A stretch of DNA of 46,142 bases from Candidatus Firestonebacteria bacterium RIFOXYD2_FULL_39_29 (GTDB lineage: Bacteria; Oederibacteriota; D2-FULL-39-29), in the NCBI GenBank assembly GCA_001778375.1, contig MFGV01000011.1, forward strand, positions 1 through 46,142, read 5' to 3'. The notes under the pieces are model-generated. The model saw only the letters and a list, made by a program, of their open reading frames with translations, was not told the DNA's origin and ran no database searches. The stretch's first letter is position 1; the number at the start of each line of letters is the position of its first letter. Below are positions 36,726 to 41,835 of this stretch, piece after piece. A program made the position numbers and the translations under genes.

Positions 36726-38327
36726 TTACTTTCCTTCCCATTTTACCGCAATAACATTTTCAGGAAGCCCGCCGGATTTTCCCCAATCTTTTTTCAAATC
36801 CTCAAAACGATTCTTATTCAACTGAAAGAAAGAGAAACCTTTTTCCGTAAATTGAATTCCCGTATAATTATTATCAGCCATGCATTTAAACACTTTTTCT
36901 TTTGACCTTTCCTGTACATATACCCCCGGGTTTTCAGTATCATATTTGCAGAAAGTCAGTAAATCTTCTATGTATACCAAACCAAGAGGTCCTGTACTCC
37001 TCACAAAAAGAAGCCTCGGCATTATTAAGTGATATTGCTGCATGTATTTTGGTCCGTTAAAATAATAGCTATTCACATATACCACCATTTTATCTTTTGG
37101 AACCGACTCCATTAGCGGCATAATTTTGTTTACAAGTTGTTTATGGTAATCCCCGAAGGTTTTATATCCCTGTTCTTCAAGATCAATATAATACACATTT
37201 GATAACGCATATACCAGGACAACAGACACTGCAATTATTTTATAACTATATTTAAACAAATTCTTCTTTCCTGATGTTATTTTCATATTATATAATTTCA
37301 TAACTACCGCGGAAATAATTATAGCGAAACCGGCAACGGGGATATACCTGTAGCGCGAATATTGAAAATATTTCACGGTAGGCACAGGAAGATAAGGAAT
37401 TAATGTTATAAGCATCCAAAAGAGTCCAAAACGTATCATTTTGTCTTTTATTAATAATAGGCAGGAAAAATACGCAATCAAAACAATAATACTTACAACT
37501 ATCACGGAATTGGAATTATAATCAAAGATACGGTAATTCAAATACATAAAATCAATATAATCAAAGATATTTTTACCAAGCTGAACCGGGATGGACATAT
37601 CAAACTTATAATAAGATGAGATTGATTGCGTATTTTTCACAAATAAATAAATAATAATATAAGCAGCTGTTATCATAAAATAAGGAAGCAGTATTTTTAT
37701 ATTACTTAAATAGTTCTTCTTTGAAAACGGTTTATTGTTAAACAATAAAACATAAAGCATTAATAGCACCGGTATTATAACTGCATTAAATAAAGCAAGA
37801 TGGGCAAGTAAAGCGAAAAATATAGAAATATAATAAATAATAATCTTTTTCGTTTTCCTGTAATATATAAAACCGGCAATGGTTAGAAGTATAAAAAGCA
37901 TTAGAGTTGAATGTCCCCTGCCGGAAATCCAGGCAATAGCTTCAATCCCTTGAGCGCTCAAGCCATAAAAGAACATGACCAGGAGGGATAATACTTTATT
38001 ATTTGAAACAAGAAGAACCACCAGCCCCAGCATTAATACATTTAAAACATGCAGAATTATGTTTGTGATATTATATCCGGCCGGATTAATCCCAAAAATA
38101 AGCATATCAATATAAGAGGACAGGGACGACATAAGCCAGGAATACCTTTCGACACAGGAAAGAAAATTCATTCTCATTTTTATAACAGAGGTAATTCCAA
38201 AAAAATCATCACCCGAAAAATAGTTATTAATCCACCTGCCATAAACAATCAATATAATTGCAGTAATAAAAAAACAGGCAAAAACATACTGCCTGCCGGT
38301 TAAGTCATCTTTTTTTAAATATTTCAT
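36726..38327 (-). CDS. Polytopic membrane protein, probable GT-C glycosyltransferase
   Basis: 533 residues with about ten membrane helices. An acidic pair in the first periplasmic loop (NYFSGDDFFG) is the usual GT-C catalytic Asp position. Next comes VERYSWLMSSLSSYIDMLIFG with the helical pattern of the protein mannosyltransferase/ArnT group. The soluble C-terminus of about 130 residues is unrecognised. It would transfer a sugar from a lipid carrier to a surface molecule; donor and acceptor are unknown. It has a perfect promoter whose start lies about 4 bases before the ATG, with no Shine-Dalgarno. It stands alone. Confidence 0.7.
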   Translation of the reverse strand: MKYLKKDDLTGRQYVFACFFITAIILIVYGRWINNYFSGDDFFGITSVIKMRMNFLSCVERYSWLMSSLSSYIDMLIFGINPAGYNITNIILHVLNVLMLGLVVLLVSNNKVLSLLVMFFYGLSAQGIEAIAWISGRGHSTLMLFILLTIAGFIYYRKTKKIIIYYISIFFALLAHLALFNAVIIPVLLMLYVLLFNNKPFSKKNYLSNIKILLPYFMITAAYIIIYLFVKNTQSISSYYKFDMSIPVQLGKNIFDYIDFMYLNYRIFDYNSNSVIVVSIIVLIAYFSCLLLIKDKMIRFGLFWMLITLIPYLPVPTVKYFQYSRYRYIPVAGFAIIISAVVMKLYNMKITSGKKNLFKYSYKIIAVSVVLVYALSNVYYIDLEEQGYKTFGDYHKQLVNKIMPLMESVPKDKMVVYVNSYYFNGPKYMQQYHLIMPRLLFVRSTGPLGLVYIEDLLTFCKYDTENPGVYVQERSKEKVFKCMADNNYTGIQFTEKGFSFFQLNKNRFEDLKKDWGKSGGLPENVIAVKWEGK

Positions 38328-38337
38328 AAGCTAAACG

Positions 38338-38366
38338 ATTATAAAAGCTTTATATGCTTTTGTCAA
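38338..38366 (-). promoter_or_regulatory. Perfect promoter of the GT-C gene, near-leaderless
   Basis: TTGACA (38361-38366), a 17-base spacer and TATAAT (38338-38343). Only 10 bases separate TATAAT from the ATG. Just upstream, an imperfect inverted repeat (GGTTTTATCGT / ACGATAAAAACC, 38369-38418) may be an operator. Confidence 0.8.
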
Positions 38367-38471
38367 ATGGTTTTATCGTGGTGTTTTCCCATGATTTTGA
38401 TATAAAACGATAAAAACCAAATATTATCAAGTAGTATTGGAAAAAGAAACTGAAAGTATTATTTTGTCATC

Positions 38472-38481
38472 TATGTAAAAG
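38472..38481 (+). repeat. Left subterminal inverted repeat of the IS
   Basis: TATGTAAAAG, the complement of CTTTTACATA at 39885-39894. Confidence 0.75.
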
Positions 38482-38599
38482 TTTGTCAAGACACAAATAT
38501 ACCACTAAGGCAAAATAAATGTGTTTGCCAAAACTCCTTCCGTAGCTAATCAGCAGAGTTCTTTTTTTGCCTTTTTTATGCTTTAATTACTTTAATTTC

Positions 38600-38721
38600 T
38601 CTTGGTCTTCAGTCATCTATCGGTGCTCTCTAAGAGCATTGTAATCTATGATTTAAACCAAGGGCAGATCAACCATTCCGTTGGACCTCTAGGGTCAATG
38701 ACAAAAAGGATCTTGCCCTCA
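38600..38721 (-). ncRNA. Candidate bridge (seek) RNA of the IS
   Basis: Transcribed strand minus, downstream of the transposase as in IS1111 elements. First module: outer stem GGGCAAGATC/GATCTGCCC (38709-38718 with 38662-38670) and inner hairpin GACC/GGTC (38684-38696). The first loop strand carries TTTTGTCATT (38697-38706), identical to the left flank. The other carries ACGGAATGG (38673-38681), complementary to the right flank. Second module: stem ACCAAG/CTTGGT (38657-38662 with 38601-38606) and hairpin GCTCT/AGAGC (38625-38637). Its strands carry ATTACAAT (38638-38645; the element's right end reads ATTACCAT) and ATAGATG (38614-38620; complement of CATCTAT at the left end). All guides include an AT core. 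The fit is by eye but has the geometry known for IS110-family bridge RNAs. Confidence 0.75.
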
Positions 38722-38753
38722 ATCAAGCATTTTTTGGCAAAAAAATCACAAGC

Positions 38754-39758
38754 CTATCTGATTAACTTTAATATTTCTTCTTCATTGAAGTATTTTTTGT
38801 TTTTCCACACTGCAAGGCTTATCGCTGCTATCTTTCTGGATATATCATTGTAAGCATTTTTATCATTATAGCCGTTCTTAGTGAGATGATCAAAATATTG
38901 CTTAAAAGCGTTATTGCTATTAACTGCCGACTGTGCCGCCATTTTGTAAACGCACTTAAGTATACTGTTACCCCATATTTTACTGCTGCCATAACTAACG
39001 CCATCACTAGTTCGCTTGTGACGAACCAACCCGCAGTAACTGTAATATTTGTGCTTGTTTGCAAAACGCTTCGGATCAATTACGTATGCAACTATCTTTG
39101 CGGTTTGGATATCACCAATACCGGGTATTGATTTAATATAATCGACTTCTTCAAATTCTTTAGATTGTTCTTTAATTTCTTTCACATAAGAACCTCTCAT
39201 TGTTTCCATTTCTCTCAGCAATTTATATATATTGCTTCCCACAAACTTATGTCCGGGATCCGCTATGTCTTCTATCAAGCTTTCATCGTTGTAAAGCTTT
39301 TTTCCTGTTTGTTTTTTTCCGGATCTTCTAAATATAGATTTATACCGATTTTTCATTCTTACAGCATCTTCAACCAATGCCATATAACCTGAGATTAATA
39401 TCTTAAATTTTTCCCTCTTAGATCCATCATGATATACAGGAGTCAGAAAGCCGCCTCTTAAAAATCTTGCTAGCTTTCTGGCATCCAATTTATCAGTTTT
39501 TTTCTTTGTATAATCTTTGTTAGCGACTGGATTGCAGACCAATACTTCTTCTGCTTCCGGCCTTATTATGTCAAAGAGCCAACTGCTTATCTCAGATTCT
39601 TCGAAGGTTACTATCTTTTTTCCGGTAAAACTCCTCAGATAGTTTTTAATTAGCCTTCCGTTTGTTTCTATTTGAGAGCTATCCTTTTCGCAGCCCTTGT
39701 TGTCCAGAACACACATTGTACATGTTGACGAATGCGCATCAATTGCTATATAATTCAT
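38754..39758 (-). CDS. IS110 family transposase (RNA-guided recombinase type)
   Basis: 334 residues. The N-terminal RuvC-like DEDD domain (DEDD_Tnp_IS110) has Asp7 (AIDAHSS), Glu53/54 (TFEES) and the pair Asp89/Asp92 (KTDKLDARKLA). The C-terminal Transposase_20 domain has SIPGIGDIQTAKIVAYV at about 210-226 and the serine motif GSSKIWGNSILK (Ser259 by position). The lengths and order match intact IS110-family enzymes, so the element may be active. AAAGGAGG lies 4 bases before the ATG. Known family role: with its bridge RNA it recombines donor and target DNA. Confidence 0.95.
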   Translation of the reverse strand: MNYIAIDAHSSTCTMCVLDNKGCEKDSSQIETNGRLIKNYLRSFTGKKIVTFEESEISSWLFDIIRPEAEEVLVCNPVANKDYTKKKTDKLDARKLARFLRGGFLTPVYHDGSKREKFKILISGYMALVEDAVRMKNRYKSIFRRSGKKQTGKKLYNDESLIEDIADPGHKFVGSNIYKLLREMETMRGSYVKEIKEQSKEFEEVDYIKSIPGIGDIQTAKIVAYVIDPKRFANKHKYYSYCGLVRHKRTSDGVSYGSSKIWGNSILKCVYKMAAQSAVNSNNAFKQYFDHLTKNGYNDKNAYNDISRKIAAISLAVWKNKKYFNEEEILKLIR

Positions 39759-39884
39759 GTGGCCTCCTTTCGAAGTTTTTGTGTGGGATAGTATCTCTGA
39801 TACTAAGCCCGTCTTCGTGATATATTAATATCACAAAAAAGGTCTGCTCTTAAAGAGCCTTATGTACCTTCTTCGGAAGGAGGT
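39759..39884 (-). promoter_or_regulatory. Right end of the IS: stacked hairpins before the transposase
   Basis: Four short hairpins: GTATC/GATAC (39791-39803), GTGATAT/ATATCAC (39817-39834), GCTCT/AGAGC (39846-39858) and CCTTC-TTCG-GAAGG (39867-39880). The third has the same arms as the hairpin inside the second module of the candidate bridge RNA. They may protect the gene from outside transcription or be an alternative RNA site. Confidence 0.5.
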
Positions 39885-39894
39885 CTTTTACATA
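39885..39894 (-). repeat. Right subterminal inverted repeat of the IS
   Basis: CTTTTACATA, complement of the left repeat at 38472-38481; five bases (TTACC) then lead to the AT core. Confidence 0.75.
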
Positions 39895-39898
39895 TTAC

Positions 39899-40027
39899 CA
39901 TTCCGTGCTTGATACGGAATCCAGTGTCTTTTTTTCATTTATTCATACTAAAAAAAGGAGACAAAGACGTTGGATCCCTAATCCCTCCAAAAAGAATGGC
40001 GGGCAGGCGAGTCGAGAATGACAGAAA
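39899..40027. repeat. Dispersed palindromic repeat, family 2, split by the IS
   Basis: CATTCCGTGCTTGATACGGA with stem TTCCGT/ACGGAA, then ATCCAGTGTC, then about 75 bases on CCTCCAAAAA...GGCGGGCAGGC, also found in the copy at 41855. Its first bases (TTTTGTCAT) now lie at 38462-38470, beyond the IS. The rest of the gap to 40125 holds only a small CCGTC/GACGG hairpin (40062-40076). Confidence 0.75.
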
Positions 40028-40125: not shown

Positions 40126-41835
40126 TTATTTAATATCCTCCATCTTCTTTATGATCCATTTGTAAGTACCGGCATTAACATATGCAATATTTCCGTCAGA
40201 GTATTTTGCTGTCAGCTTTTCAAACATTTTTTTGGCAATCTCGGTTTCTTTTTTCATGAGAAACCTTTCGATAGTTGTAAGATTACGGTCAATCTCATCC
40301 ACCTGACTCGTTGAAAGGATTCGATCCTTATCGCCGATAACTATTTCCTCTTTTTTCTCGTCTACTTTCTTTTCTTTCATTTCCTTTTTCACTTCTATTC
40401 TCTCGTCTTCTACCTTTTCTATAAACATTGCATCAAGAAGTTTAAACCACTTCCTGCCAAAATCATCATATAATGGAAGGACCTCCTCGTTGCACCAGGC
40501 TTTGCCCGTCACCGGCTTATCATCCCAATAATCTTGAGTATAATAGACCTTGCATTCGCAATCCGCAGGAAAATTAACGGTCTTTTCGGAATAGTAGTTC
40601 CTAACAGGATTAAAAACAAAAAGCTTTTTTACTCCATTTTCTTTTATTTTTGCGGTTTCATTCAATAAAGTAAGACCTGACTCACCAAACCCCACAGCAT
40701 AAAGCTTCTTATTCTCTTGTTTCGCCTTATTTCTCGAATAATCCAGGGCTTTAATTATCCTTTCTTTACATATTACATAATCATCCATGCTGATGTCTAT
40801 GGTGACAACATTATACCCAAGTTCTTGAAGGTAATATATATTATCCATTAGATTTGTTGAAGTAAACTTCTTATCATGCAAAAACAATATAATATTTCCA
40901 TTCTTCTTAACCGGATATTCCATTACATCATCTTTTGCTGAAGGGTAAAATGTTTTCTTTATAAAATCATGAGGAAGTTCTTCCCATTTTTTCCTGAACC
41001 CCTCTGAAGGAAAATTAAGTATTTTGCCTTCAAAAGAATACTTCACAGGCCATTTTTCAGCCGAAGGCAGCTTATTGTTATTCTTTCTTAAATCAATTAT
41101 TCCCTTTACAAATTCAAACAGATATTCTTCCGCCATTTTGCTTGCGCCATGATGAAAATCCTGAGCTCCCATATTGGCATATATCGGGGGAGTTACCGGC
41201 CTCAACACTTGCATATTAAGAGCAGTTGAATCTTCCATGAACTTATCATTTGCTTTTTTTGTATCATCCCCCCAGGTATTTATCATCAACCATGCTACAT
41301 CAGTCTTGACCGTTGGTTTATCATAATTAGCACCGCCAACTACAGCGACCGCATCAACCTTATCAGGATAGTATATTCCCATTTGCTGAGCCATGCTCGC
41401 ACCACCGGATTCACCGACTATAATTAGTTTTTTCCTATCAAGGCCATAATCTGCTATTAATTTATCCTGAACTTTAAACATAAGGTCATGCCAGCCGGAT
41501 TCCTTATAATAATACCATTTTGTCCTATTTTCCGGTTCTTCCTTTTTGTATTTATACTCAAAAGTAAAGACAGTACAGCCCATATTCTTCACAAAGTAAT
41601 TATTAAACTCCCTGACGAAAAACTTTCTCTCTCCGACAAAAGGAGCGCAAAACACGATATTACTTGCGCTAGACATAATCCTGTTAAATTTCATAGGAAC
41701 AGCATAAAAGACAGTAACTGTAGTATTATTTTCAAACTCTGTTGTAAAAGTATATTCCCCCCGTTTCACTGTAAATTCATCATCACAAAATAATGATAAT
41801 ATACTCATAAACAACAGAACCGCTGTCTTTTTCAC
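40126..41835 (-). CDS. Secreted protein with two alpha/beta-hydrolase-like domains
   Basis: 569 residues, GTG start with GGGGAG upstream. Signal peptide about 1-17 (the Cys after it is not a good lipobox). The first alpha/beta-hydrolase domain (about 35-260) has the nucleophile elbow GESGGAS (Ser143) and a histidine in AQDFHHGASKMAEE. A second hydrolase-like domain (about 310-470) has GFGESGLT. A lysine/glutamate-rich helical linker (about 475-510) leads to a short C-terminal helical part (KMFEKLTAKYSDGNIAYVNA, repeat-like). The substrate is unknown; both domains could be esterase, peptidase or thioesterase types. Single gene with repeats on both sides. Confidence 0.7.
   Translation of the reverse strand: MKKTAVLLFMSILSLFCDDEFTVKRGEYTFTTEFENNTTVTVFYAVPMKFNRIMSSASNIVFCAPFVGERKFFVREFNNYFVKNMGCTVFTFEYKYKKEEPENRTKWYYYKESGWHDLMFKVQDKLIADYGLDRKKLIIVGESGGASMAQQMGIYYPDKVDAVAVVGGANYDKPTVKTDVAWLMINTWGDDTKKANDKFMEDSTALNMQVLRPVTPPIYANMGAQDFHHGASKMAEEYLFEFVKGIIDLRKNNNKLPSAEKWPVKYSFEGKILNFPSEGFRKKWEELPHDFIKKTFYPSAKDDVMEYPVKKNGNIILFLHDKKFTSTNLMDNIYYLQELGYNVVTIDISMDDYVICKERIIKALDYSRNKAKQENKKLYAVGFGESGLTLLNETAKIKENGVKKLFVFNPVRNYYSEKTVNFPADCECKVYYTQDYWDDKPVTGKAWCNEEVLPLYDDFGRKWFKLLDAMFIEKVEDERIEVKKEMKEKKVDEKKEEIVIGDKDRILSTSQVDEIDRNLTTIERFLMKKETEIAKKMFEKLTAKYSDGNIAYVNAGTYKWIIKKMEDIK

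What the first reader, a model, noticed from the sequence alone, without database searches (positions are those of the whole stretch)
38462..39910. Insertion sequence whose bridge RNA guides can be read and match the interrupted target
Seen: the downstream region (38600-38721, minus strand) folds into two modules. One carries TTTTGTCATT and ACGGAATGG. The first is identical to the left flank and the second is complementary to the right flank. The other module carries ATTACAAT and ATAGATG, matching the joined right and left ends of the element (one mismatch). All four segments include an AT, which is also present at both junctions. The pairing geometry (5' guide like the top strand, 3' guide complementary to it) is that reported for IS110-family bridge RNAs. 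Inferred: this is a complete RNA-guided element in a lineage where such guides may be uncharacterised, with core AT.
Basis: partly seen in the sequence, partly recalled or inferred. Interest (0 to 1): 0.9.

Follow-up and report, generated by a model that had tools for sequence, protein, structure and literature searches.

The report
IS1111-type insertion sequence with readable guides
This is a complete jumping gene of the known IS1111 kind whose small RNA spells out its landing site, a repeat scattered through the host genome, and a sister copy in a related bacterium shows guide and landing site changing together; the mechanism is already known.

Summary
The window carries a 1,431-bp IS110-superfamily element encoding a 334-aa DEDD recombinase (38754-39758, minus strand).

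Two corrections apply. (1) In the element's own orientation the guide order is that of IS1111 seekRNAs (top-strand match first), not IS110/IS621. The 10-bp subterminal inverted repeats and the downstream RNA also say IS1111. (2) The junctions share CAT on the + strand. Four relatives narrow the shared core to TG in element orientation (CA on +), not AT.

Strongest evidence: a sister element (81% aa, Candidatus Firestonebacteria) has one base changed in its guide (CGGAATG to CGCAATG) and the same change in its target. In that genus all three left flanks found at contig ends read CTCGCAATG and all six right flanks ATGACAG. Across nine elements, own guide-target matches beat 19,999 of 20,000 random pairings. 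The target is a dispersed palindromic repeat, uninterrupted elsewhere in this genome and in a same-genus genome. Joining the ends would create a TTGACA-17-TAATAT promoter.

RNA guidance, natural retargeting, REP targeting and junction promoters are published for IS1111/IS110. This is a new member of a known kind.

The parts
38470..39898 (-). The insertion sequence, between the two core copies (1,431 bp counting one core)
   Evidence: Junction comparison with the sister element and relatives; uninterrupted repeat copies
38468..38469 (.). Core dinucleotide at the right end (CA on +, TG in element orientation); the junctions share CAT
   Evidence: Exact junction overlap TG in L004, L005, L006, L059
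39899..39900 (.). Core dinucleotide at the left end (CA on +)
   Evidence: As above
38754..39758 (-). Recombinase (transposase), 334 aa; DEDD/RuvC-like N-terminal domain plus Transposase_20 C-terminal domain; serine motif reads GLVRHKRTSDG
   Evidence: Pfam PF01548 1.4e-14 and PF02371 1.5e-12; NCBIfam NF033542 142.6 bits, cutoff 140; IS621 PDB match 7.8e-9
38596..38735 (-). Bridge RNA / seekRNA region: target-binding module then donor-binding module
   Evidence: Fold; 27 of 27 proposed pairs kept in the sister element, 2 double changes
38697..38706 (-). [quoted passage not shown]
   Evidence: 10-base exact match to the rejoined target
38674..38681 (-). [quoted passage not shown]
   Evidence: 8-base exact match; sister element has CGCAATG with target CGCAATG
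38638..38645 (-). 5' donor guide ATTACAAT (left end of the joined element; one mismatch, in the core)
   Evidence: Sequence; retained in the sister element
38614..38620 (-). 3' donor guide ATAGATG (right end of the joined element)
   Evidence: Exact match to CATAGATG; ATAGATG, ATAGACG or ATAGAGG form seen in relatives
38472..38481 (+). Subterminal inverted repeat, right end (TATGTAAAAG)
   Evidence: Sequence
39885..39894 (+). Subterminal inverted repeat, left end (CTTTTACATA)
   Evidence: Sequence
39901..39927 (+). Right part of the interrupted palindromic repeat (TTCCGTGCTTGATACGGAATCCAGTGT); the left part ends at 38469 with TTTTGTCA
   Evidence: Uninterrupted copies in this genome and in same-genus G001

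Best explanation
An autonomous IS1111-type insertion sequence. Inferred cycle: the recombinase excises the element as a circle. Joining the ends makes a promoter (TTGACA in the right end, TAATAT in the left end, 17 bp apart) that transcribes the recombinase gene and the downstream RNA. The RNA's first module pairs with both strands of the target around the core and its second module with the joined ends, so the recombinase exchanges strands at the shared core and inserts the element. Shown by sequence: gene, ends, guides, target, guide-target co-change and the interrupted repeat. Inferred from characterised relatives: RNA production, the circle, strand exchange and current activity. The guide is tuned to a palindromic repeat dispersed through the host genome, which would give many mostly harmless landing sites.
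For: Recombinase domains and IS621 homology. Target guides match the rejoined site (p about 4e-4). Sister element at 81% identity: guide and target share the same base change. Three of three left flanks CTCGCAATG and six of six right flanks ATGACAG in the sister genus. Nine-element own-versus-other guide matching: total 125 against a permuted mean of 80.7, 1 of 20,000 permutations as good. Two relatives 85% identical to each other (L005, L059) differ sharply in the RNA at the two guide segments, each matching its own flanks. Repeat abundance: TGTCATTGCG occurs 26 and 44 times in the sister-genus genomes (controls 2 and 2); TGTCATTCCG occurs 12 times in the window's genome (control 3). Junction promoter, 0.5% of shuffles as good.
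Against: The RNA fold is not significantly more stable than shuffles. No Rfam family matched. One core mismatch in the 5' donor guide. The recombinase motif has SD where IS110/IS1111 members have SG or TG, and lacks the motif's proline. Only one complete copy is held in the window's genome, so movement within it is not shown. L061 gives no clear guide match and L003 only a partial one.
Confidence: 0.94

Rival explanations
1. The recombinase protein itself, or the hairpin shape of the repeat, selects the target; the guide-like matches are chance or fossil sequence.
For: The interrupted site is a palindromic repeat, and at least two relatives (L004, L006) also sit in palindromes.
Against: The guide changes with the target between sister elements. 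L005 and L059, 85% identical, have different targets, each matched by its own guides. Own guide-target pairing beats permutation.
Confidence: 0.04
2. A decayed, immobile IS1111 relic that merely keeps readable guides.
For: Single complete copy in the genome; SD instead of SG in the serine motif.
Against: Open frame of 334 aa, intact ends, guides and junction promoter. A sister element with the same SD motif has close relatives that are multicopy (eight element ends at contig ends in G003). The compensatory changes in the stems imply selection.
Confidence: 0.15
3. The element belongs to the IS110/IS621 group.
For: NCBIfam names the protein IS110 family; the structural matches are IS621 and ISCro4.
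Against: RNA lies downstream of the gene, right end 284 bp against left end 140 bp, 10-bp subterminal repeats, and IS1111 guide order.
Confidence: 0.05

Closest known systems
IS1111 family with seekRNA (ISEc11, ISPa11, ISKpn4, ISPst6; PMC11187229)
   Same: DEDD recombinase of 330-350 aa, subterminal inverted repeats, RNA region downstream of the gene, top-strand guide before bottom-strand guide, junction promoter; ISPa11 also targets REP repeats; natural retargeting reported (ISEc11/ISXne4).
   Different: Host lineage (Candidatus Firestonebacteria); serine motif GLVRHKRTSDG lacks the P and G of GL-P----S(t)G; target repeat is of a different sequence.
IS621 / IS110 group with bridge RNA (PMC11208160)
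   Same: Same recombinase superfamily; target loop followed by donor loop; each guide includes the core dinucleotide.
   Different: In IS621 the RNA is upstream of the gene, the ends carry only very short inverted repeats, and the order of the strand matches is reversed.
TIGR-Tas nuclease (NF052498)
   Same: The C-terminal part scores 57.8 bits against the model.
   Different: Below the curated cut-off of 100; the element carries its own ends and a bridge-type RNA.

Membership tests
IS110/IS1111 superfamily | DEDD (RuvC-like) N-terminal domain and Transposase_20 C-terminal domain | tested here: met
   PF01548 54.6 bits (cutoff 29), PF02371 48.2 bits (cutoff 21.3); NF033542 142.6 bits (cutoff 140)
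IS1111 | Subterminal inverted repeats of 7-17 bp | tested here: met
   10-bp perfect TATGTAAAAG / CTTTTACATA at 38472-38481 and 39885-39894
IS1111 | Long non-coding region downstream of the gene (right end longer than left end) | tested here: met
   284 bp downstream, 140 bp upstream
IS1111 | RNA with top-strand match 5' of bottom-strand match | tested here: met
   Guides in element orientation against the order given in PMC11187229
IS1111 | GL-P----S(t)G motif in the C-terminal domain | tested here: not met
   Window reads GLVRHKRTSDG and the sister GLVRHQRVSDG: GL and the serine kept, P and G not. PMC11187229 presents the motif as a consensus that varies (SG, TG, occasionally TA), so I treat this as a departure in detail and say IS1111-type rather than claim strict membership
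IS1111 | Recombinase places inside the IS1111 clade of a reference tree | not tested
IS1111 | Promoter formed when the ends join | tested here: met
   TTGACA-17-TAATAT, 0.5% of shuffles as good; activity not testable here
IS1111 seekRNA systems | RNA co-purifies with the recombinase and is needed for transposition | not testable with these tools
   Needs expression and RNA sequencing
IS110 group (IS621-like) | RNA upstream of the gene, bottom-strand match first | tested here: not met
   Opposite on both counts

The most novel reading that the evidence does not exclude
The window element and its distant relatives (L003-L006, L059-L061) may form a distinct IS1111-like subfamily of little-studied phyla, with an altered serine motif and a mostly fixed TG core, whose guides follow the abundant dispersed repeats of each host by point changes or whole guide replacement.
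Probability: 0.25. Interest if true: 0.45.

Novelty: new member of a known kind. Interest (0 to 1): 0.36.

Why it matters
It shows that guides and targets of IS1111 elements can be read directly from metagenome-derived genomes, without experiments. It adds natural guide-target co-change in a candidate phylum, and a closely related pair elsewhere (L005/L059) in which both guides have been replaced while the RNA around them is kept. Such pairs show which RNA positions are free to be reprogrammed. The mechanism itself is already established.

Tried and rejected
Rfam scan: only two tRNAs in the window. My first search string for the flank-joined site, TTTTGTCATTACCATTCCGT, found nothing, because it contains element bases (TTAC); the correct rejoined target does not. 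Viral contigs: no relatives. Plasmids: only about 24-27% identical IS110-family proteins. Core AT: rejected because L004, L005, L006 and L059 have CT, GT, TT and CT at that position of the left junction and AT at the right, while TG is shared by both. RNA fold stability as evidence: rejected (z -1.58 and -1.17). A covariance model was not built, since only two close complete RNAs exist. Structure prediction was judged unnecessary given the clear family matches.

Full report
WHAT IS THERE. The window carries one open reading frame of 334 aa on the minus strand (38754-39758) with Pfam domains DEDD_Tnp_IS110 and Transposase_20. It passes the NCBIfam model for IS110-family RNA-guided transposases (142.6 bits, cutoff 140) and matches IS621 and ISCro4 in the PDB. 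It is the only match in the 3.0-Mb genome. The nearest relative found is 81% identical, in Candidatus Firestonebacteria AM-2014_bin-3360, a genome of the same family as the window's.

BOUNDARIES. Aligning the window element with the sister (L007) shows identity beginning and ending at the same points: AATGGTAATATGTAAAAG on the left and CTTTTACATAGATGACA on the right, in element orientation. The two junctions of the window element share ATG (CAT on +). In L004, L005, L006 and L059 the bases shared by the two junctions are exactly TG, so TG (CA on +) is the likely core and AT is not. The element is then 38470-39898 plus one core, 1,431 bp. It interrupts a dispersed palindromic repeat, GTCATTCCGTGCTTGATACGGAATCCAGTGTC. 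Eleven relatives of this repeat elsewhere in the same genome and nineteen in same-genus G001 run uninterrupted through the insertion point. One is a 129-bp, 86% identical uninterrupted relative of both flanks (G000:C92:5206-5334).

GUIDES. In the RNA sense, the first module carries TTTTGTCATT and ACGGAATG, matching the rejoined target over 10 and 8 bases across the core. Among 8,258 other AT sites of the window, 3 score as well against this region. The second module carries ATTACAAT (one mismatch) and ATAGATG (exact), matching the joined ends. Free-energy folding gives two modules, but not more stably than shuffles. In the sister all 27 proposed stem pairs are kept, two through changes on both sides and one through a one-sided change.

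DO GUIDES FOLLOW TARGETS? Yes. (a) The sister's second target guide reads CGCAATG and its target CGCAATG, where the window has CGGAATG in both. (b) In the sister genus, element ends at contig ends give three left flanks, all CTCGCAATG, and six right flanks, all ATGACAG, in otherwise different surroundings. The guides of these partial copies are not on the contigs. (c) For nine elements, scoring every non-coding region against every target gives an own-pair total of 125 against a permuted mean of 80.7; 1 of 20,000 permutations did as well. The junctions were placed by eye from the conserved end motifs before scoring, and I had already seen some of the matches, which is a limit of this test. (d) L005 and L059 (84.8% aa identity) have RNA regions that agree around the guides but differ at both guide segments, ACGAATG..ATTCGTG against AAGGGGTCA..AAGTCTG, each matching its own flanks.

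HOST REPEATS. TGTCATTGCG, the sister's target type, occurs 26 and 44 times in the two sister-genus genomes (controls 2 and 2), and 7 times in the window's genome (control 2). TGTCATTCCG, the window's type, occurs 12 times in the window's genome (control 3), and 4 and 5 times in the sister-genus genomes. The guide thus fits the commoner repeat of each host. The enrichment in the window's genome is modest.

PROMOTER. Joining the ends places TTGACA 17 bp before TAATAT, with the TG core giving a TGn extension. 0.5% of shuffles do as well. The other eight junctions show similar, mostly weaker, arrangements.

CLASSIFICATION. In element orientation the first guide pairs with the top strand and the second with the bottom strand, which is the IS1111 order in PMC11187229 and the reverse of ISEc21/IS110. 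Downstream RNA, the longer right end and the 10-bp subterminal repeats agree with IS1111. The serine motif departs from consensus (SD for SG, no proline), so I file it as IS1111-type with that reservation. A reference tree was not made.

NOVELTY. RNA guidance, natural retargeting (ISEc11/ISXne4, ISEc21/ISMch6), targeting of REP repeats (ISPa11) and junction promoters are all published (PMC11187229, PMC11208160). A full-text search for the host phylum with insertion sequences found one paper, on mercury methylation. This is a new member of a known kind, unusually well supported by sequence alone.

Noticed in passing
L005 and L059 (G073:C9, G355:C209): Two IS1111-like elements with 85% identical recombinases whose RNAs differ sharply at the two target-guide segments, each matching its own flanks: natural replacement of both guides.
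   Followed up: yes
L014 / G000:C92:5206-5334: An uninterrupted paralogue of both flanks of the element, reading GTCATCTATGCTTGATACGG where the repeat would read GTCATTCCGTGCTTG; the CTATG equals the element's right end and could be an imprecise-excision scar or coincidence.
   Followed up: partly
38365-38470: The left flank is itself a longer dispersed repeat (relatives at G000:C92, G000:C18 end, G004:C54) with an inverted repeat GGTTTTATCGT/ACGATAAAAACC; it may be a small non-autonomous mobile element.
   Followed up: partly
G003 contigs C107, C72, C98, C114, C23, C146, C109, C113: Eight ends of a close relative of this element sit at contig ends, so its multicopy insertions seem to break this assembly; the interior was not found in the bin.
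   Followed up: partly
L003 (G174): Its two junctions differ in the second core base (CG left, CA right), hinting at exchange with a mismatched core.
   Followed up: no
36726-38327 and 40126-41835: Neighbouring genes of 533 and 569 aa with no Pfam match; the first looks like a multi-span membrane protein.
   Followed up: no
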